From contig CAINDG010000025.1 in the NCBI GenBank assembly GCA_903847315.1, positions 1-64,000 of the forward strand: DNA of 64,000 bases, given 5' to 3'. Shown here piece after piece: positions 3,154-64,000 of this stretch (position 1 is the stretch's first letter; each line of letters opens with the position of its first letter). This DNA comes from an uncultured Planctomycetota bacterium (GTDB lineage: Bacteria; Planctomycetota; Phycisphaerae; Sedimentisphaerales; UBA12454). Position numbers and translations under genes: made by a program. The notes below the pieces were generated by a model. It made no database searches and was not told the DNA's origin. It saw nothing but the letters and a program-made list of their open reading frames with translations.

Positions 3154-3738
3154 ATGGCTGATAGAAAAGCAAAAATAGCGAGAAAGACCAAAGAAACAGA
3201 CATCAGCGTTCAAATCAATCTTGACGGCGTCGGAAAATATGAAATCGACACCGGCATAGGATTCCTCGACCATATGCTATGCCATTTGAGCAAGCACAGC
3301 AAAATGGACCTTGTCCTCAAAGCCAAGGGCGACCTTGAGGTTGACCAGCATCATACGGTAGAAGATGTCGCGATATGTTTAGGACAGGCACTAATCGAGG
3401 CGCTGGGCGACAAGAAAGGCATCGCCCGATACGGCAATAGTGCAGTACCAATGGAAGATGCACTGGCGAATGTCGCTTTGGATTTGTCCGGCAGACCTTT
3501 CTGCGTTTACGATGTAAAATATAGAACGGAAAAAATCGGCGATTTCGACGTCGAATGCGTGGAAGAATTGCTGAGAAGTTTCGCGAATAACGGCAAATTC
3601 AATTTGCATATAACCGTTTCGCACGGCACAAACAGCCATCATATCGCAGAGGCGATATTCAAGGCAATCGGACAGGCGCTGGGGCAGGCTGTTAAACTTA
3701 CCGGCGGCGATATACCGAGCACAAAGGGGTCCCTGTGA
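3154..3738 (+). CDS. hisB: Imidazoleglycerol-phosphate dehydratase
   Basis: Manganese enzyme of histidine synthesis that dehydrates imidazole glycerol phosphate to the ketone used by HisC. The conserved metal-site motifs are present: GFLDHML, DQHHTVED, and near the end GTNSHHIAEAIFKA. It is the single-domain bacterial type (about 195 residues), without the phosphatase domain of the E. coli protein. The start was set at the ATG at 3154 because GAGGG lies 8 bases upstream; the longer frame from a TTG at 3136 would overlap hisC. Its 3' end overlaps ispF by 4 bases. Confidence 0.95.
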   Translation: MADRKAKIARKTKETDISVQINLDGVGKYEIDTGIGFLDHMLCHLSKHSKMDLVLKAKGDLEVDQHHTVEDVAICLGQALIEALGDKKGIARYGNSAVPMEDALANVALDLSGRPFCVYDVKYRTEKIGDFDVECVEELLRSFANNGKFNLHITVSHGTNSHHIAEAIFKAIGQALGQAVKLTGGDIPSTKGSL

Positions 3739-4247
3739 ACGGCGATATAAATTACGAATACAGAACAGGCATCGGCACCGATATCCACCGCCTTGTCGAA
3801 GGCAGACCACTGAAACTGGGCGGGGTTCTCGTGCCTTTCGATAAAGGATTGCTGGCATACAGCGACGGCGACGTTGCGCTGCATGCCCTGATAGACGCAA
3901 TCATCGGCGCAGCGGGACTGGGCGATATCGGAATGCTATTTCCCAATAGCGACCCGCAATTTAAAGATATCGACAGCAAGGAACTTGTGCTGAAAGTTAA
4001 AGATTATATAGCAGGCAAAAACTGGGAAGTGGTAAACGCCGACATTACAATCACCGCTGAAGAGCCGAAACTGGGACCATTTAAAATGCAGATGAAAAGA
4101 TGCATCGCCAGTTTACTATGCATCGATTTTCTCAATGTAAATGTAAAAGCAAAAACCAACGAAGGGCTCGGCGAAATAGGAACAGGACTTGCGATTTCAG
4201 CTATAGCGAACGTATTATTAAGAAGAAGACTCAAAAGAACATTGTGA
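3735..4247 (+). CDS. ispF: 2-C-methyl-D-erythritol 2,4-cyclodiphosphate synthase
   Basis: Fifth enzyme of the MEP isoprenoid pathway; it cyclises CDP-methylerythritol 2-phosphate and releases CMP. Zinc ligands are visible as D16-x-H18 (TDIHRL) and H50 (SDGDVALHA). The C-terminal NVKAKTNEGLGEIG segment is typical. It starts with GTG inside the end of hisB (GTGA overlap), so the two are translationally coupled. A second MEP-pathway gene, dxr, lies about 22 kb away on the other strand. Confidence 0.95.
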   Translation: MNGDINYEYRTGIGTDIHRLVEGRPLKLGGVLVPFDKGLLAYSDGDVALHALIDAIIGAAGLGDIGMLFPNSDPQFKDIDSKELVLKVKDYIAGKNWEVVNADITITAEEPKLGPFKMQMKRCIASLLCIDFLNVNVKAKTNEGLGEIGTGLAISAIANVLLRRRLKRTL

Positions 4248-27599: not shown

Positions 27600-27999
27600 T
27601 AATTTGCTAAAATTGACATAAGTCTTTTTAATGAAAGAAATTAGATAAATTGCAGAAAATGAACCAAATTATCATTAAGCGGAGAAAATAGGTTGAGTTT
27701 TAAGAGAGAAAAAGATAGAATTTTGGCAGACATTGAGGAAACAGCGGAGGAAGAAACTTAAAAGTTAAAACCAAATGACAGCGTACTTCTACCATCCATA
27801 GCAGAGGTACTCTGCGGAGGACAGGTCGCAAAGTAGCGACTACGGAGAATGGAGTTTGCGTAGCCAGGCGTTTAATCCATCTCTGGCAGATTAATATGGA
27901 AATGTCGGATAAAGATGTACCATCATCAGCTATGCAGAAAAGTCCTATACGTTATTGAAAAGTTAAGATAATTTCGTTGTCAATAAAGGAGGTATTATT
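27600..27999. other. Gene-poor left edge of the DUF4062 island, with hairpin repeats
   Basis: 400 bases without a recognisable gene. They hold a 22-codon frame from a TTG at 27693 to 27761 (reads MSFKREKDRILADIEE onward) with GGAG 8 bases upstream, which may be a tiny gene or the cut-off start of a lost one. They also hold a perfect hairpin GCAGAG-GTA-CTCTGC (27801-27815) and a second GTCGC...GCGAC stem near 27825-27840. A strong AAGGAGG (27986-27992) serves the next gene. Confidence 0.5.
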
Positions 28000-29649
28000 A
28001 TGCCACGAGAAAATATAGTTGAGACAACCCGAAAATATCAAGTTTTTATAAGCTCGACTTTTAAATATCTTAAGGAAGAAAGAAAAAAAGCAGTTGAAGT
28101 AGTTGTTGCCGATGGACACATACCAATAGATCTAAGTATGTTTGCCGCACATACACAAACCGACCTCGATATTATTCTCCAATCCATAGAAGAATGTCAG
28201 ATCTATATTATTATATTAGGACATTGCTATGGATCAATTATTGAAGAAGAGAAACGCGAAAAGCTTTTCAAAATGCTGGGGGATCCTAACCCTGATCTAT
28301 CGCAAAAAATGAGTTATACCGAATTCGAATATAGATTGGCCAAGAAAAAAGGGTTGGCAGTATTGTCGTTCGTTCTCAAGGATGACGAAATAGAGGAAAA
28401 GAGAAAGGAGCTTAATCATAAGAATATAGAAGACGCTAATGAACTTGACAATCGCGGACTTTTGATAAGCTTTCACAAACTGGTAAAGAGTGACCATTTC
28501 TACAGACCATTCAGCACCAAAGAAGAATTCAAATGTCACGTTCTTCAATCTTTACATAAGGCCATTGCTTATCTTAAAATACCAGGATGGATTCGTGAGC
28601 CGGAAGATCCCAAACAACAGGAATTGATCAAATCTGTTTCTAATAACCCATTTATATTGGATATTGTTAAAAAGCTAAGTGGATTCAAAACTTTAGATAG
28701 TCGTTTTCACCGAAGCAGGGAAAAGAAAATATCTGCTGCTCAATTATTTAGCCAGACCTATCACAACGCGTTATTCGAGCATGAATTGAACCTTTTCTTG
28801 GAATCTGGATCGTGTGTTACATATGTCGCAAAGGCACTTGCTCCCAGCCTTGCTGGCGATCGCATTGATGAAAAAGGTGATCCTCGCATAAGTATCAGTA
28901 CGAATAATGTTATAGCCTATCAACTCCTCTGGTTATGTCACAAGATACCGATTACTTTATTTCCCTGGGGTGAGCCAGAAGTTCTCTATGGTGCGACATA
29001 TGGACGCATGGGGCGTCGACCTGACCAGGCTGACCCGGATCCGTATTATGATCAAGCACCTTTGGATGTCGATGAAGTAAATGAAATTAATAAACTTAAA
29101 ACCATGCCTTTCAGTATTGCAAAATGGGAAAATCAAGCTCCAGGACTTATACTTGGCGCCACATCGGGACTGCAAATTTCTGAAAAACATAATATTGTCA
29201 AGGCCATCAAAGATCCAGAAACAGGGGAGGTCAAAATTCTTGACGAGTCGGTTGAAAAGAAAGTTATCGATTTAATTAATAAATGTTATGGCCCACATGT
29301 TGGCAGTTACAAAAACAAAATGTTTAAACGGTTCTTATATGATGTTGGACAACCAATCATGGTTTTCCTGGAAAGTGATAAAATCGACAGTCAGATCAGA
29401 GCGGGTGTATGTCATTTCATGCTGGATCAGAAATATTCTTGGCAAAAATTCCTTACGGAACTCCCTTTGGCTTTTTGCGTCGGGTGTTCACAGAATGAAA
29501 AAGATAGTCTGATCCAAACGTTTAAGAGACTGGAATTTGAGGTGATTCCTGGAAATGACTGGGCTAATTACACTGCTATTATAGCTAGAAACAACCGATT
29601 TATTGAGAAATTTGAGAAGAAAGTGCAATTTATCCCACCAAATCGATAA
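28000..29649 (+). CDS. DUF4062-domain protein with a long C-terminal domain of unknown function
   Basis: 549 residues. The N-terminal part from KYQVFISSTFKYLKEER through about residue 180 is a DUF4062 domain, a Rossmann-like module (FISSTF..L..ER start, IIILGHCYGS, MSYTEFEYRLAKKKG) found in large signalling and conflict-related proteins. The rest is not a family I can name. The pattern ESGSCVTYVAKAL, ISTNNVIAYQL, LILGATSG resembles the sugar-phosphate-binding fold of DeoR C-termini and ribose-phosphate isomerases, which would suggest a sensor; this is inference from layout only. No nuclease or pore motif is seen. AAGGAGG lies 7 bases before the ATG. The gene is visibly richer in A+T than its neighbours and stands alone, pointing to transfer. 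Confidence 0.75.
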   Translation: MPRENIVETTRKYQVFISSTFKYLKEERKKAVEVVVADGHIPIDLSMFAAHTQTDLDIILQSIEECQIYIIILGHCYGSIIEEEKREKLFKMLGDPNPDLSQKMSYTEFEYRLAKKKGLAVLSFVLKDDEIEEKRKELNHKNIEDANELDNRGLLISFHKLVKSDHFYRPFSTKEEFKCHVLQSLHKAIAYLKIPGWIREPEDPKQQELIKSVSNNPFILDIVKKLSGFKTLDSRFHRSREKKISAAQLFSQTYHNALFEHELNLFLESGSCVTYVAKALAPSLAGDRIDEKGDPRISISTNNVIAYQLLWLCHKIPITLFPWGEPEVLYGATYGRMGRRPDQADPDPYYDQAPLDVDEVNEINKLKTMPFSIAKWENQAPGLILGATSGLQISEKHNIVKAIKDPETGEVKILDESVEKKVIDLINKCYGPHVGSYKNKMFKRFLYDVGQPIMVFLESDKIDSQIRAGVCHFMLDQKYSWQKFLTELPLAFCVGCSQNEKDSLIQTFKRLEFEVIPGNDWANYTAIIARNNRFIEKFEKKVQFIPPNR

Positions 29650-29977
29650 AGTTTTACTGATTTCTTGGCAGGTAGTTTTACTTTGACGTTATACGGAAAT
29701 CATATAATCAGAGTTGAGTGAAATCTGGTGACACCATATCGGGGAAAAAGGAATGTAACTTTTTATTGAAAGAATTTTTAAAAAGGCAAGATTCCAAAGA
29801 ACAGATACCACTCTGCGAAGTAGCGTCGCTACGTAGCACAAGACCAGAAGTAATGGACTTGGCCATCCCTAACGGGATTGCATTAGCTCAGGCATGTTGC
29901 CGCCTATGATACAGGTAGCGGGTAAATAAACTGCGATTTTATTTGAAAAACTTTCACATATCGCTATAAATACCTCT
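29650..29977. other. Right edge of the DUF4062 island
   Basis: No gene is seen. The stretch contains ACTCTGCGAAGTAGCG with a GTAGCG-T-CGCTAC inverted repeat (about 29810-29838). This is related in wording to the CTCTGCGGAG and AGTAGCGAC elements on the other side of the island (27809-27840). The last 35 bases hold the promoter of the BioD-like gene. Confidence 0.5.
29943..29970 (+). promoter_or_regulatory. Sigma-70-type promoter of the BioD-like gene, predicted leaderless
   Basis: TTGAAA (29943-29948), 16-base spacer, TATAAA (29965-29970). The ATG is at 29978, 7 bases after the -10 box, so the transcript should begin at the start codon. No Shine-Dalgarno site is present. Confidence 0.7.
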
Positions 29978-34432: not shown

Positions 34433-35545
34433 CTATACAGTTTTGTTGAACTTGATTTTGCCAATGATATTTGATTTATCAAACACCATCGGCTCTGCAG
34501 TAATCGGGCTCTTCCGTGCTAAGTCCCTAGCAAGTTTACCCATCTTTTCTAATACAGAGTGAGCATAATCCATACCATCCAATGTTGGTTTTTGTTCCTC
34601 TCCAGATGGAGCAAATTTTTCAATCATATTGCTAAAGTCAATGAAATGTGAACCTTGACTTCTAGATTTACATATTATTTCAGGGTCTTTTGGAAGAAAA
34701 TATAAAACTGAAGGAATACTTTCTTTTCCTTCTATTTTCAATTCAGTACATTTAGCAAGAACCTTTTCTTGTGCTATTGCTAGTGGCGCAGAATGCACAA
34801 TTAGATTTCGATAGCTACTCATAACTTTTATCCATCCACCAGTCCCTGTTGCCTCTTTTAATTGCTGTATTACTGGTTCACTAACCGAAAACTTCTTTAG
34901 AGGTTCAATAAGTTGGCTCATCATCGTAATCCGGTTTTTCCCAGAATCATTGACTTTAAAAACAATGGCAATAAATTCCGCCAAATAGTCTCTTAGAATA
35001 CAAATATCAACAAGAAATCCTTGCAATGCCATATTCACAAATTCCGTAAAACCATCCATAATTTGATTGCCATCTTTGAAGGCAGAGCGTTGAATAATTC
35101 CATTAACTTGGTTGTGATATGCTTCGGATATTTCTCTTAACCGCCAGGCTGCCGTCCTAAGTTGGTATGCAATTCGGCTGCTCATATCCCATAAAAATCC
35201 ATCCTGCTTCTTGAACGCTGCATGTGCGATATCTCTCCATGTCTGGACAGTCAGTTCTATCAGCCATCCCCCTTCTGTACTTCGGTTATATGGCCGCCAT
35301 TCTGCGGGTGCTCCTCCGCTCATATGGATAACGTGATAGTAGAAATCAACGCCGTAGATTTTCAGCCCCAGCGATTCGAGTTTTTTGTATACTTCAGCAT
35401 AGGTGCCAATTTCCATCTTTATGCTTTGTCTTCCCTCTATCTCTGGGAAAAACTTAACCTTCCCGTTTTTTTCATTGATTGCCCTAGCACCACCTGCTAA
35501 ATGAAATATGCGTATAGCTGGCCATTCATTCTGTGTTTCCGTCAT
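34433..35545 (-). CDS. Protein with HEPN-like RX4H motif, unknown function
   Basis: 370 residues. The first 100 form an alpha/beta region with no family I recognise (AIRIFHLAGGARAI, EIGTYAEVYKKLESLGLKIYG). From about residue 105 it is almost all helical, and R246-N-L-I-V-H251 (SSYRNLIVHSAPLAI) fits the RX4-6H signature of HEPN domains, many of which are RNases in toxin-antitoxin and phage-defence proteins. A Cthe_2314-type HEPN protein is one possible relative. No antitoxin-like partner lies next to it. It is isolated between repeats on both sides, which suggests it is accessory. AAGGTGAT stands about 8 bases before the ATG. Confidence 0.6.
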   Translation of the reverse strand: MTETQNEWPAIRIFHLAGGARAINEKNGKVKFFPEIEGRQSIKMEIGTYAEVYKKLESLGLKIYGVDFYYHVIHMSGGAPAEWRPYNRSTEGGWLIELTVQTWRDIAHAAFKKQDGFLWDMSSRIAYQLRTAAWRLREISEAYHNQVNGIIQRSAFKDGNQIMDGFTEFVNMALQGFLVDICILRDYLAEFIAIVFKVNDSGKNRITMMSQLIEPLKKFSVSEPVIQQLKEATGTGGWIKVMSSYRNLIVHSAPLAIAQEKVLAKCTELKIEGKESIPSVLYFLPKDPEIICKSRSQGSHFIDFSNMIEKFAPSGEEQKPTLDGMDYAHSVLEKMGKLARDLARKSPITAEPMVFDKSNIIGKIKFNKTV

Positions 35546-36048: not shown

Positions 36049-37395
36049 TCATATTTGAATATTATATTCTTTGATTTTGCGATAAAGGGTTCTTTCGCCG
36101 ATGCCGAGGAGTTTGGCGGCCTTTTCACGATTGTTGCTGACCTTTGCGAGGGTATCAATAATCGCCTGCCGTTCGAGATGGTTAAGCGAACCGCCCCCCG
36201 CTACCTGGCCTGCTAATTGCCTTACGTGATGGATTTCAGCAGGTATATCCTTTACATCGAGAACCTCCGAGTCGCTCATAACGGCCATCATTCTGATACA
36301 GTTTTTCAACTGCCTTATATTTCCGGGCCAGTCGTAAGCTCTGAGGATTTTCAATACGCTGTCAGAAATAGTTTTTTTTGTCTTGCCTAACTCATCGGCG
36401 GCCTGCGATAAGAAATAATCGACAAGCTCCGGGATATCTTCGGGCCTGTCTCGAAGAGCCGGGACGGTTACACTGACACCCTTGATTCTGTAGAAAAGGT
36501 CCTGCCTGAATTTGCCCTGTTCGAGGAGATTTGTAAGGTCGTGATTCGTAGCGCTGATAACGCGAACATTGACAACGGTGGATTTGTTCGAGCCGACCGG
36601 CACTACGATACCATCTTCGAGAACCCGCAGTAATTTCGCCTGCATAGTAAGCGGCATATCGCCGATTTCGTCGAGGAAAAGCGTGCCCTTATCAGCAGTC
36701 TCAAATAATCCTTTTCGAGCTTCCGTCGCGCCTGTAAATGCGCCTTTCGCGTGGCCGAACAGTTCGCTTTCGAGCAGCGACTCGGTTAAACCTGCGCAAT
36801 TGAGCGGTTTAAACGCGTTATTCCTTCGCGGCGAATTACTATGTATCGCCTGGGCGAGCAATTCCTTTCCTGTGCCGGACTCGCCTTCAATAAGAACGGT
36901 TATATTGGTCGGCGCAATTCGTTTGAGAACGGTCAAAACAGACTGCATTGCGGGACTTTTGCCGACTACCCCTTCAAACATAAAACCATTTTTGCGGTTT
37001 TCGGCTGACGGAGAAGTCAAAAACTTTTTCAATGCCCTTTCAGTCGTTGCGCGAAGCTGGTCTATATCGATAGGTTTGACTAAATAATCGAATGCGCCGT
37101 TGCGCATCGCTTCTTTGCAGGTATCTATCGTGGCAAAAGCAGTAATAAGAATGACATCGCTGTGCGGATTTTCTTTCCTGGCTGTTTTTAAGATATCAAT
37201 GCCGTTGATTTTATTATCGTTAAGATTCAAATCGGTTATAACGATATCGATATGTTTGCTGCCGAGCAGTTCGACGGCGTTTTTCGCGTCATAGACAGCA
37301 ATTGTTTCGCCGCCGGTCTGCGAAAGGGCTTCTGCCAGCACGTCTGCGTGGCCGGCTTCATCGTCTATAATCAGTATTACAGGTTTTTCCGCCAT
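36049..37395 (-). CDS. Sigma-54-dependent response regulator, NtrC family
   Basis: About 448 residues in three domains. The receiver domain has D11/D12, the phosphorylated D55 (IVITDLNLND) and the Lys in LVKPID. The AAA+ domain has GESGTGKE, the sigma-54 contact loop GAFTGA and DEIGDMP. The C-terminal Fis-type helix-turn-helix ends in NREKAAKLLGIGERTLYRKIKEY. It activates sigma-54 promoters when phosphorylated. The start was set at MAEKPVILIIDDE (37395); the longer frame has no family support. It lies one base after the stop of its partner kinase. Confidence 0.93.
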   Translation of the reverse strand: MAEKPVILIIDDEAGHADVLAEALSQTGGETIAVYDAKNAVELLGSKHIDIVITDLNLNDNKINGIDILKTARKENPHSDVILITAFATIDTCKEAMRNGAFDYLVKPIDIDQLRATTERALKKFLTSPSAENRKNGFMFEGVVGKSPAMQSVLTVLKRIAPTNITVLIEGESGTGKELLAQAIHSNSPRRNNAFKPLNCAGLTESLLESELFGHAKGAFTGATEARKGLFETADKGTLFLDEIGDMPLTMQAKLLRVLEDGIVVPVGSNKSTVVNVRVISATNHDLTNLLEQGKFRQDLFYRIKGVSVTVPALRDRPEDIPELVDYFLSQAADELGKTKKTISDSVLKILRAYDWPGNIRQLKNCIRMMAVMSDSEVLDVKDIPAEIHHVRQLAGQVAGGGSLNHLERQAIIDTLAKVSNNREKAAKLLGIGERTLYRKIKEYNIQI

Positions 37396-37396
37396 A

Positions 37397-38119
37397 TCAT
37401 TTTTCTTCCAGAGGCAACTGGATGGTAAAAGACGTGCCTTTTTGCGGCACACTGTCAACTTTTATCGAGCCGTGATGTGCTTCGATGATTTTTTTAGACG
37501 CTGAAAGCCCCAGTCCGCTGCCGCCGAGCTTTGTCGAATAATAAGCATCGAAAATCCTGTCCAGGTTTTCCGGCTCGATTCCCTTGCCTGTATCGCTAAC
37601 AATAATTACGGCGTTTGCGCCGTTTTTCTGGGTTCTAAGCATCAGTTCTCCGCCGTTGGGCATCGCCTGCTGAGAATTTATAAAAAGATTAAGCAAAACC
37701 TGCTTCAGCATATCAGCGTCCGCCCTGCAAATCAACTGCTGACTGCAGAGAGCGGTTCTGAGCGTAATCGAACGGCTGACAGCCTGCGGCGAATAAAAAT
37801 CCGTCATATCCGTTACAAGATGGTTAATATCGACAGAGACAGGATGCAGTTCGGTCTTTCGGATGTACCGCAGAAAATCTTCGAGAATCTGCTCGAGCCG
37901 GTCAGTCTCTTTCTGGACGACAGCGATTTTTCTGGCTGCCCTTGCGGGGTTTGCGTCTTTGGAGCCGAGTTCTTCCTCTATCAGTTTGAGATTAACTTTG
38001 ATAATCGAAAGCGGATTTTTTATTTCGTGAGCCAGGCCGCCTGTAAGACGGCTTAGTTCCTCAAGCTCGGATATTTTCGAGGTCTGTTCTTTCACGTTTT
38101 TTTCGCGATTATGCAACAT
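37397..38119 (-). CDS. Soluble sensor histidine kinase, NtrB-like
   Basis: 240 residues without a membrane segment or a clear sensor domain. The phospho-acceptor helix has H31 in GGLAHEIKNPLSII, and the ATPase domain has the N box LLNLFINSQQAMPNGG, the G1 box DTGKGIEP and the G2 box GGSGLGLSASKKII. It is cotranscribed with the NtrC-type regulator and is its likely partner. The short coiled-coil start suggests that the signal comes through a protein partner. It lies 39 bases after pnp in the same direction. Confidence 0.9.
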   Translation of the reverse strand: MLHNREKNVKEQTSKISELEELSRLTGGLAHEIKNPLSIIKVNLKLIEEELGSKDANPARAARKIAVVQKETDRLEQILEDFLRYIRKTELHPVSVDINHLVTDMTDFYSPQAVSRSITLRTALCSQQLICRADADMLKQVLLNLFINSQQAMPNGGELMLRTQKNGANAVIIVSDTGKGIEPENLDRIFDAYYSTKLGGSGLGLSASKKIIEAHHGSIKVDSVPQKGTSFTIQLPLEEK

Positions 38120-63049: not shown

Positions 63050-64000
63050 TTACGCCCAGAAAGGTACATATCTGGCGTGCTTACGAGATTCACTTTCCTG
63101 TTCAACAGGTTTAATTACTTTTTCTTCAACAGCATCTTTTATAATTCTTGATACCATCGCACTATTTTCCTTTTGAATTCCAAATCTTTCCCGCAATGAA
63201 GAATTAGTCAAAGACTCACGTTGGACGTATTTTAAACAGGCGTGGAGATAGGTGGCGCGAATTTTGTCATTTTTGTCCATCTTTGATAATGGTCGATGCG
63301 AAAAAAGTGTAACCTTGGTGCTATTATCAATGACTTCAAATAAAGGCGCTGGCAATTGATAAAACTCTGCCTGAAAAACAACCTTATCTATTCCACTTCC
63401 TCGTTCTTCGCATACTCCTATCCTTCGCATAAATGAAGCAAGTGTTTCATTGCGAGATTTTGGTGGACTATCAAGAAAACGCTCTGTTTTTACGAGTGAT
63501 TCGCCAGGATTTGTTATTTCAAGCCGATCGGAAAATATCTCTATCATGGGGCCTGTCCCCTTTAGGAAAAAATCTTGGTGTATTATAGCATTCGCAACAA
63601 GTTCGCGAACAGCAATTTCCGGATACATCGGAACATCCTTTCGCAACGCCTTGCCTATTATTTCATTACGAGGAATAAGACCATTGATAAATTCTATTAG
63701 CCCTCCAAAACCAGAGGCGTATCCTCTTCCTCCTGTTTGTTCCTTTATTGTTTCAAGTCTTGTTGTGCCATTATAAACAACAACGCGAACAGCTTTTCGT
63801 TTCAGACTCTTGAAATCATCAAGTTTTTTTGCAAAAAGAATAGCCCCAAGATTCGTAATACTATATGTCCCTGCATCATCAATCAATATCATGTTATCAC
63901 CGGAAAGTTTTTCCAGTATGCCTCTTTTGTTATCAGGAAGCGGCTGACCAACAAGTTCAAAATATGATGGATAATCTATAAACCTGAGTACTTCATCGGT
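63050..64000 (-). CDS. AlbA/Schlafen-type ATP-binding DNA/RNA-binding protein (partial)
   Basis: The frame is open to the right window edge; 316 codons are seen, the C-terminal part. EVLRFIDYPSYFELVGQPLP and GTYSITNLGAILFAKKL belong to the linker after the AlbA_2 (Schlafen) domain, and REL VANAIIHQDFF with IEIFSDRLEITNPG is the GHKL-like 'RecG C-terminal-like' ATPase part (N and G1 boxes). RRIGVCEERGSGIDK follows, and a C-terminal winged-helix (ESLTNSSLRERFGI). These proteins are often annotated as putative transcriptional regulators and are frequent in accessory regions and near defence genes. Confidence 0.8.
   Translation of the reverse strand, partial: TDEVLRFIDYPSYFELVGQPLPDNKRGILEKLSGDNMILIDDAGTYSITNLGAILFAKKLDDFKSLKRKAVRVVVYNGTTRLETIKEQTGGRGYASGFGGLIEFINGLIPRNEIIGKALRKDVPMYPEIAVRELVANAIIHQDFFLKGTGPMIEIFSDRLEITNPGESLVKTERFLDSPPKSRNETLASFMRRIGVCEERGSGIDKVVFQAEFYQLPAPLFEVIDNSTKVTLFSHRPLSKMDKNDKIRATYLHACLKYVQRESLTNSSLRERFGIQKENSAMVSRIIKDAVEEKVIKPVEQESESRKHARYVPFWA

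What the first reader, a model, noticed from the sequence alone, without database searches (positions are those of the whole stretch)
27600..29977. DUF4062 island: candidate single-gene conflict or signalling system
An A+T-richer, lone gene with a very strong ribosome site lies between related hairpin repeats and between two housekeeping areas. The protein joins DUF4062 to a long C-terminus whose ESGSCVTYVAKAL / ISTNNVIAYQL / LILGATSG pattern looks like a sugar-phosphate-binding (DeoR C-terminal / isomerase-like) fold. A receptor plus DUF4062 combination would fit a nucleotide- or metabolite-sensing defence protein that has not, to my knowledge, been described.
Basis: inference. Interest (0 to 1): 0.7.

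Follow-up and report, generated by a model that had tools for sequence, protein, structure and literature searches.

The report
NAD-destroying enzyme with sugar-phosphate sensor
A single gene from an uncultured bacterium appears to fuse an NAD-destroying, phage-defence-type enzyme to a sugar-phosphate sensor of the kind normally found in gene regulators, a combination we did not find described; the role itself is predicted, not tested.

Summary
The 549-residue gene at 28000-29649 is real. Its first 200 residues are a DUF4062 domain, which a May 2026 preprint (PMC13174449) shows to be a TIR-like NADase of an antiphage system, Swarozyc; the catalytic glutamate is kept (E110, invariant in 8 of 8 relatives). 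The C-terminus is not that system's portal-binding domain. Predicted alone (pLDDT 84, pTM 0.85) it matches the E. coli DeoR sensor half best: Z 14.8, 2.8 A, all 180 residues; ribose-5-phosphate isomerase and eIF2B follow. Seven other proteins with both domains turned up in five phyla. The family is very patchy; 4 of 8 relatives' loci have neighbours from known or candidate defence families. The sensor half also occurs behind a membrane segment (one gene, with an in-frame stop) and alone. Best reading: a one-gene abortive-infection device in which a sugar-phosphate or nucleotide-derived ligand switches on NAD hydrolysis. Ligand, activity and defence are untested. The flanking hairpin repeats are not above chance. 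New variant of a known kind.

The parts
27985..27993 (+). Shine-Dalgarno-type site AAAGGAGGT before the start codon
   Evidence: sequence
28000..29649 (+). Gene for a 549-aa DUF4062 (TIR-like) + DeoR-sensor-like protein
   Evidence: ORF; two-domain relatives; full-length model
28030..28593 (+). DUF4062 / TIR-like NADase domain, about residues 11-198
   Evidence: Pfam E 1.8e-21; profile match to KpSwz E 1e-27 and human TEP1 E 2.8e-6; structure matches to NDT/TIR proteins over residues 11-198
28327..28329 (+). E110, predicted catalytic glutamate (KpSwz E97 position)
   Evidence: aligned to an alanine of a chain whose preprint construct is E97A; invariant in 8 of 8
28594..28701 (+). Low-confidence linker/helical region between the domains
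   Evidence: pLDDT under 50 at residues 198-204 and 206-233
28702..29586 (+). DeoR-C-terminal-type (ISOCOT fold) sensor domain, residues 235-529
   Evidence: VIA: DeoR 7l6l_D Z 14.8, 180 of 180 residues (residues 237-529 of the full model, Z 14.3); Foldseek RpiA E 1.2e-6; hhalign to DeoRC P 9.9e-6
28801..28812 (+). ESGS loop, residues 268-271 (E. coli DeoR DCGT position)
   Evidence: S269, G270, S271 invariant in 8 of 8; aligned with DeoR
28900..28908 (+). TNN loop, residues 301-303
   Evidence: invariant in 8 of 8
29158..29169 (+). ATSG loop, residues 387-390
   Evidence: A387, S389, G390 invariant in 8 of 8
29296..29331 (+). HVGSYKNKMFKR motif, residues 433-444
   Evidence: H, V, G, Y, N, F, K, R invariant in 8 of 8
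29380..29382 (+). K461, lysine in the order of the DeoR 'DHSK' lysine
   Evidence: invariant in 8 of 8; the register with DeoR in this half is not statistically supported

Best explanation
A one-gene, ligand-gated NADase. The N-terminal TIR-like DUF4062 domain hydrolyses NAD+ when several copies are brought into register. The C-terminal DeoR-type domain binds a sugar phosphate or a nucleotide-derived sugar phosphate that appears or rises during phage infection (deoxyribose- or ribose-5-phosphate from nucleotide breakdown are the natural candidates, since deoxyribose-5-phosphate is the recalled inducer of E. coli DeoR). Binding changes how the sensor halves pack, lines up the TIR-like halves, empties the cell of NAD+ and stops the phage by abortive infection. 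Shown by computation: both folds, the retained catalytic glutamate, the conserved sensor loops, recurrence of the fusion. Inferred: NADase activity here, ligand class, oligomer switch, defence.
For: DUF4062 E 1.8e-21. A profile of 8 members matches KpSwz, the solved Swarozyc protein, E 1e-27, and PMC13174449 (text parts 1-3 of 6 and figure legends read) shows that domain to be an NADase needing E97 and proposes oligomer rearrangement as the switch; E110 sits at that place, invariant in 8 of 8. Sensor fold: DeoR Z 14.8 against 10.7 for the next entry, and again from the full-length model, Z 14.3. Profile match to DeoRC P 9.9e-6, score 44.6 against a maximum of 16.5 in 100 column shuffles. The sensor half is about as conserved as the effector half (28 of 43 invariant positions lie beyond residue 200; identities to the window protein 25-45% against 30-46%), at loops where this fold binds sugar phosphates (recalled), which fits one shared small ligand better than a fast-changing phage protein. 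Patchy spread: the full fusion in 2 of 392 phylum genomes including our own. Defence-family neighbours in 4 of 8 relatives' loci. A sensor-half relative behind a membrane segment (L020) and one alone (L030) suggest a reusable module.
Against: No activity, ligand or phage test exists. The window's own neighbours are housekeeping, not a defence island. Pfam DeoRC does not reach its cut-off in any member (best in a fusion E 0.12-0.2). Only the first 75 columns match DeoR by profile; the second half does not. Foldseek alone ranks RpiA, not DeoR, first. The full model is moderate (pTM 0.59) with an uncertain inter-domain arrangement. By fold the N-terminus is as close to nucleotide N-glycosidases (MilB, DNPH1) as to TIR domains, so the substrate could be a nucleotide other than NAD+. 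4 of 8 relatives' neighbourhoods show no clear defence gene (one search gives two untraced matches among 22 neighbours of L010, L011, L012, L014).
Confidence: 0.5

Rival explanations
1. It works like Swarozyc proper: the C-terminal domain is a docking surface for a phage protein (such as portal), and the old sugar-phosphate fold is only a scaffold. Protein binding lines up the NADase halves.
For: KpSwz senses portal protein through its C-terminal domain (PMC13174449). The fold is also used in the multi-protein complex eIF2B (matches).
Against: The loops ESGS, TNN, A-SG and HVG-Y-N--FKR are invariant in 8 of 8 across five phyla, which is unexpected for a surface chasing a phage protein. The match to KpSwz ends at chain residue 181 of 326, before its auxiliary domain.
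Confidence: 0.2
2. A signal maker rather than an executioner: the DUF4062 domain makes an ADP-ribose-type messenger that opens a separate membrane effector, as in Thoeris.
For: In Ca. Scalindua the gene lies about 90 nt downstream of, and on the same strand as, a gene matching PADLOC '2TM effector' models (E 3e-5).
Against: No such partner was seen beside the gene in the window or in the other loci read. KpSwz releases ADP-ribose and nicotinamide, and TEP1 made no further ADP-ribose derivatives (PMC13174449).
Confidence: 0.1
3. A self-sensing nucleotide glycosidase: the N-terminal domain cuts a (deoxy)nucleoside monophosphate, as MilB and DNPH1 do, and the C-terminal domain senses the (deoxy)ribose-5-phosphate product, giving feedback.
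For: Best structural neighbours of the N-terminus are MilB (Z 12.4) and Rcl/DNPH1 (Z 12.3), ahead of SPARTA TIR (Z 11.9), though within one Z unit. PMC12884076 (passages read) states that MilB and DNPH1 release deoxyribose/ribose 5-phosphates; DeoR's recalled ligand is deoxyribose-5-phosphate.
Against: By sequence the domain belongs with DUF4062 (KpSwz, TEP1), where NAD(P)+ is the shown substrate.
Confidence: 0.12
4. Not defence: a metabolic switch that trims NAD or nucleotides when sugar phosphates pile up.
For: Housekeeping neighbours in the window; DeoR-type domains normally sense metabolism (recalled).
Against: Rarity and scattered phyla, atypical base composition, and defence-type neighbours in 4 of 8 relatives' loci do not look like a metabolic gene.
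Confidence: 0.08

Closest known systems
Swarozyc (KpSwz; DUF4062 TIR-like NADase, PMC13174449; PDB 10wc, 11cq, 11cv)
   Same: N-terminal DUF4062 domain, catalytic glutamate, one-gene effector + C-terminal sensor layout, patchy spread
   Different: C-terminal half here is a DeoR-type fold of about 300 residues instead of an HTH/winged portal-binding domain; trigger therefore probably different
DeoR-family repressors (E. coli DeoR, PDB 7l6l)
   Same: Sensor fold over all 180 residues; the leading helix, SG(S/T) loop and TN loop align in the profile comparison
   Different: No DeoR HTH; a TIR-like enzyme takes its place; insertions make the domain about 300 residues; below Pfam cut-off
Ribose-5-phosphate isomerase A
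   Same: Same fold (Foldseek E 1.2e-6, VIA Z up to 10.7), SGST loop
   Different: No DGAD or KGG motif in 8 of 8 members, so no isomerase site expected
TEP1 DUF4062 (PDB 11gz)
   Same: DUF4062 TIR-like NADase (profile E 2.8e-6)
   Different: TEP1 has NACHT and WD40 parts and sits in the vault
Thoeris and other TIR effectors (SPARTA TIR-APAZ, TIR-STING)
   Same: TIR-like fold of the N-terminus
   Different: No ThsA, Argonaute or cyclase partner seen beside the gene

Membership tests
Swarozyc | DUF4062 domain above curated cut-off | tested here: met
   76.6 bits against cut-off 24.7; 7 of 7 fusion relatives scanned also above it
Swarozyc | Catalytic glutamate (KpSwz E97) | tested here: met
   E110 aligns with the alanine two after FTE in the KpSwz chain; that this is the mutated E97 follows from the construct name, not from a residue table; invariant 8 of 8
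Swarozyc | HTH/winged portal-binding auxiliary domain | tested here: not met
   The C-terminus positively matches another fold, DeoR-type; profile match to KpSwz ends before its auxiliary domain
Swarozyc | NAD+ hydrolysis and phage protection | not testable with these tools
   needs protein and phage assays
DeoR family transcription factors | C-terminal sensor fold | tested here: met
   Z 14.8, rmsd 2.8, 180 of 180 residues
DeoR family transcription factors | Pfam DeoRC above curated cut-off | tested here: not met
   no match in the window protein; L010 E 0.12-0.2; L020 16.5 bits against 31.8
DeoR family transcription factors | N-terminal DeoR HTH | tested here: not met
   N-terminus is DUF4062
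Ribose-5-phosphate isomerase A | Catalytic DGAD and KGG motifs (recalled) | tested here: not met
   absent in 8 of 8 sequences
Thoeris | Adjacent ThsA effector | tested here: not met
   window neighbours read as housekeeping, no ThsA match among 52 proteins scanned

The most novel reading that the evidence does not exclude
A DeoR-type sugar-phosphate receptor has been moved from gene control to immunity: it measures a phosphorylated sugar released when phage takes apart or remakes nucleotides (or the ribose-phosphate end of ADP-ribose itself, giving a self-amplifying switch) and fires a TIR-like NADase directly. The same receptor is also wired to a membrane-anchored output, so it would be a general infection-sensor module.
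Probability: 0.35. Interest if true: 0.82.

Novelty: new variant of a known kind. Interest (0 to 1): 0.62.

Why it matters
NADase defences whose triggers are known mostly sense phage proteins or nucleotide messengers (recalled). A defence NADase that reads a sugar phosphate would mean bacteria detect infection through the state of their nucleotide or sugar metabolism, and would give a ready-made, testable receptor: one gene, one predicted catalytic residue, a well-understood pocket fold and a short list of candidate ligands. It also extends the very recent DUF4062 NADase family, which includes human TEP1, with a new kind of regulatory half.

Tried and rejected
Single-sequence searches failed: the genome-contig scan with the full protein gave 0 relatives among 28 stretches; the C-terminal half gave 0 in plasmids (also with three relatives), 0 in phages and 0 in three viral-contig scans. 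Full-length plasmid hits (161 records, 10 rows seen) cover at most 52% of the query; the longest, from Paenibacillus, was translated and has another C-terminus. Viral structure library: 0 matches at E 0.001 or better. No NCBIfam or PADLOC family for the protein (the one NCBIfam row is E 0.053, below cut-off).

Flank hairpins as mobile-element ends: rejected. Terminator scan: 0 found.

Window as a defence island: rejected. PADLOC matches among 52 proteins that I traced are generic: an NtrC-type regulator at 36052-37458 and an ATPase-like gene at 63053 on; the others (mad2, PDC-M43B, homing endonuclease, DolB, IetA) were not traced to a member. The MzaA match (E 1.9e-60) and a weak REase_II match (8.6e-6) were not traced either; a sigma-70-like ORF in L012 is my guess for the former.

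hhalign control: one of 20 second-half shuffles gave score 132 on 11 columns at a matrix edge, which I read as a program artefact; the 100 full-length shuffles had none above 16.5.

Papers: the Swarozyc preprint has no 'isomerase', 'DeoR' or 'sugar' in its main text; its supplement, where auxiliary domains are drawn, was not readable here. 'DeoR' hits in PMC7159879 and PMC8195603 are the author name Deora. Searches 'DeoR + TIR domain + antiphage defense' (0 papers), 'DeoR + TIR domain + phage defense' (2; PMC12118408 not opened), 'ISOCOT' (28, first 20 titles seen) and (titles and abstract starts seen) showed no such fusion. 'DUF4062' gave 9 papers (one opened). A search for the name Swarozyc found 0 papers, probably because it is printed with an accent.

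Full report
What is there. One open frame, 28000-29649 on the + strand, 549 residues, begins just after AAAGGAGGT. Its G+C is 0.384 and its third-position G+C 0.344, against 0.51-0.54 third-position in dxr, rseP, folD and the next gene. The 64-kb window around it reads as housekeeping, and those PADLOC matches that I traced, among 52 proteins of the window and the adjoining stretch, are generic regulators or ATPases (five kinds of match not traced). The hairpins of the flanks are not above chance.

N-terminal half. Pfam DUF4062, E 1.8e-21, residues 14-114. A profile of eight relatives matches KpSwz, the solved Klebsiella Swarozyc protein, at E 1e-27 over profile positions 8-208, and human TEP1 at 2.8e-6. 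The preprint PMC13174449 (text parts 1-3 of 6 and figure legends read; supplement not readable) shows that DUF4062 is a TIR-like NADase, that KpSwz protects E. coli from phage by emptying NAD+, that this needs E97, and that its C-terminal HTH/winged domain binds the phage portal. In the alignment the deposited chain has alanine where our protein has E110 (SYTEFE, 105-110); the construct is named E97A, so I take E110 as the catalytic residue. It is invariant in 8 of 8. By fold, residues 11-198 are close to both nucleotide N-glycosidases (MilB Z 12.4, Rcl/DNPH1 12.3) and TIR domains (SPARTA 11.9, TIR-STING 11.3); these lie within about one Z unit.

C-terminal half. No Pfam match above cut-off, no PADLOC and no NCBIfam family. 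Seven of the eight carry DUF4062 + the same C-terminus in one frame (7 of 7 scanned above the Pfam cut-off); L012 is cut near its contig end, next to a transposase-like frame. Predicted from an eight-row alignment, the C-terminal half has pLDDT 84.0 and pTM 0.85. Foldseek against the PDB: 29 matches at E 0.001 or better, all ribose-5-phosphate isomerase A except one entry listed without a molecule name, best 1.2e-6. VIA realignment of Foldseek's 1000 best: E. coli DeoR first, Z 14.8, 2.8 A, 180 of 180 residues (chain 73-252, the sensor half), then RpiA 10.7 and eIF2B 10.4; the full-length model gives DeoR again, Z 14.3, residues 237-529. Independently, PMC10991401 (passages read) reports for a genuine DeoR-family sensor, CsqR, the same three kinds of match in the same order: DeoR 7l6l, RpiA 4gmk, eIF2B. 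Profile comparison with 20 DeoRC sequences gives P 9.9e-6 over 75 columns (score 44.6; 100 column shuffles at most 16.5; reversed 10.7), including the helix in front of the first strand; the second half of the domain gives no significant match. RpiA's DGAD and KGG motifs (recalled) are absent in 8 of 8, so I expect a receptor, not an isomerase.

Conservation. Of 43 positions invariant in 8 of 8, 28 lie beyond residue 200, among them S269-G270-S271, T301-N302-N303, G331, A387, S389-G390, H433-V434-G435, Y437, N439, F442-K443-R444 and K461. Strands of the model end at or next to most of these loops. A sensor for a changing phage protein would be expected to vary; this half does not vary more than the enzyme half. 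That argument is inference.

Spread. With the C-terminal query: 2 of 392 genomes of the phylum, our own included. With profiles: 2 of 75 in the class of the Brocadia genome, 2 of 397 in our class, our own included, the other being the stand-alone L030, 1 of 247 and 1 of 288 in the phyla of L010 and L017, each only the genome I started from. In 58 relatives the full query hit 4, essentially only in the DUF4062 half. In a nine-row tree the window protein groups with the Acidobacteriota proteins and L012 (87/94, below the tool's star), and the two other Planctomycetota proteins lie elsewhere; long branches (L016, L017, L013) make deep placement unsure. Patchiness plus odd composition favours horizontal transfer; the tree alone does not prove it.

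Company. Of eight relatives' loci, four have neighbours from defence families: Ca. Brocadia L013, TIR_2 genes on both sides (E 6e-28); Ca. Scalindua L015, a 2TM-effector-like gene just upstream (E 3e-5) and a PDC-M60A/C candidate system (E 3e-107, 2e-121); Opitutaceae L017, a type I restriction HsdR (E 3e-129); Nitrospirota L016, a DUF3800 protein matching PDC-M04A (E 1e-12). For L010, L011, L012 and L014, 22 neighbours gave two untraced matches. The sample is small, the scans used different thresholds, and I ran no matched null.

Modularity. A second Ca. Scalindua gene (L020) joins a membrane segment (my reading of the sequence) to the start of the same domain (profile E 1.6e-12, 5.6e-18; Pfam DeoRC E 0.0087), with an in-frame stop before the end. 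L030 carries a divergent copy alone (E 3.3e-7). Both fit a sensor that can be plugged onto different outputs.

Mechanism. I favour a sugar-phosphate- or nucleotide-derived ligand that reorders the sensor halves and so lines up the TIR-like halves for NAD+ hydrolysis. Phage infection disturbs nucleotide pools (recalled); PMC12884076 (passages read) shows phage enzymes of the NDT family that hydrolyse dAMP to deoxyribose-5-phosphate and adenine, one concrete way such a ligand could appear. That DeoR's inducer is deoxyribose-5-phosphate is recalled. Rivals are a protein-docking sensor as in KpSwz, a messenger maker for a 2TM partner, a glycosidase sensing its own product, and a metabolic role.

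Verdict. It is a new variant of a known kind: Swarozyc-like effector, different sensor. It is not filed as Swarozyc (auxiliary domain differs) nor as a DeoR repressor (no HTH, below cut-off). I found no description of the fusion in the searches listed under Tried and rejected, but the Swarozyc supplement was not readable.

Noticed in passing
contig G000:C25:67442-68620 (L031:4443-5621, +), about 3.4 kb beyond the window's end: A second DUF4062 gene in the same genome, 392 aa, with a different C-terminus and no PADLOC match; it lies beside a gyrA-like ORF.
   Followed up: partly
window 34433-35545 (-): A 370-aa orphan frame with third-position G+C 0.34, as low as the finding's gene, without Pfam match above cut-off or PADLOC match.
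   Followed up: partly
L015:6363-7013 (+), Ca. Scalindua: A 217-aa protein like PADLOC '2TM' effectors directly upstream of the DUF4062-DeoR-type gene, possible operon partner.
   Followed up: partly
L020:1219-2115 (+), second gene in the Ca. Scalindua genome: Apparent membrane segment fused to the same sensor domain, with an in-frame stop before the domain's end.
   Followed up: partly
L013:254-1420 and 3716-4180 (+), Ca. Brocadia: Two closely similar TIR_2 genes flank the family member on both sides.
   Followed up: no
L030:343-1512 (+): Stand-alone 390-aa divergent relative of the sensor half near a contig start in another genome of the class.
   Followed up: no
window genome (G000): No classical DeoRC protein (0 at E 0.001) and no RpiA-family match in the window's own genome.
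   Followed up: no
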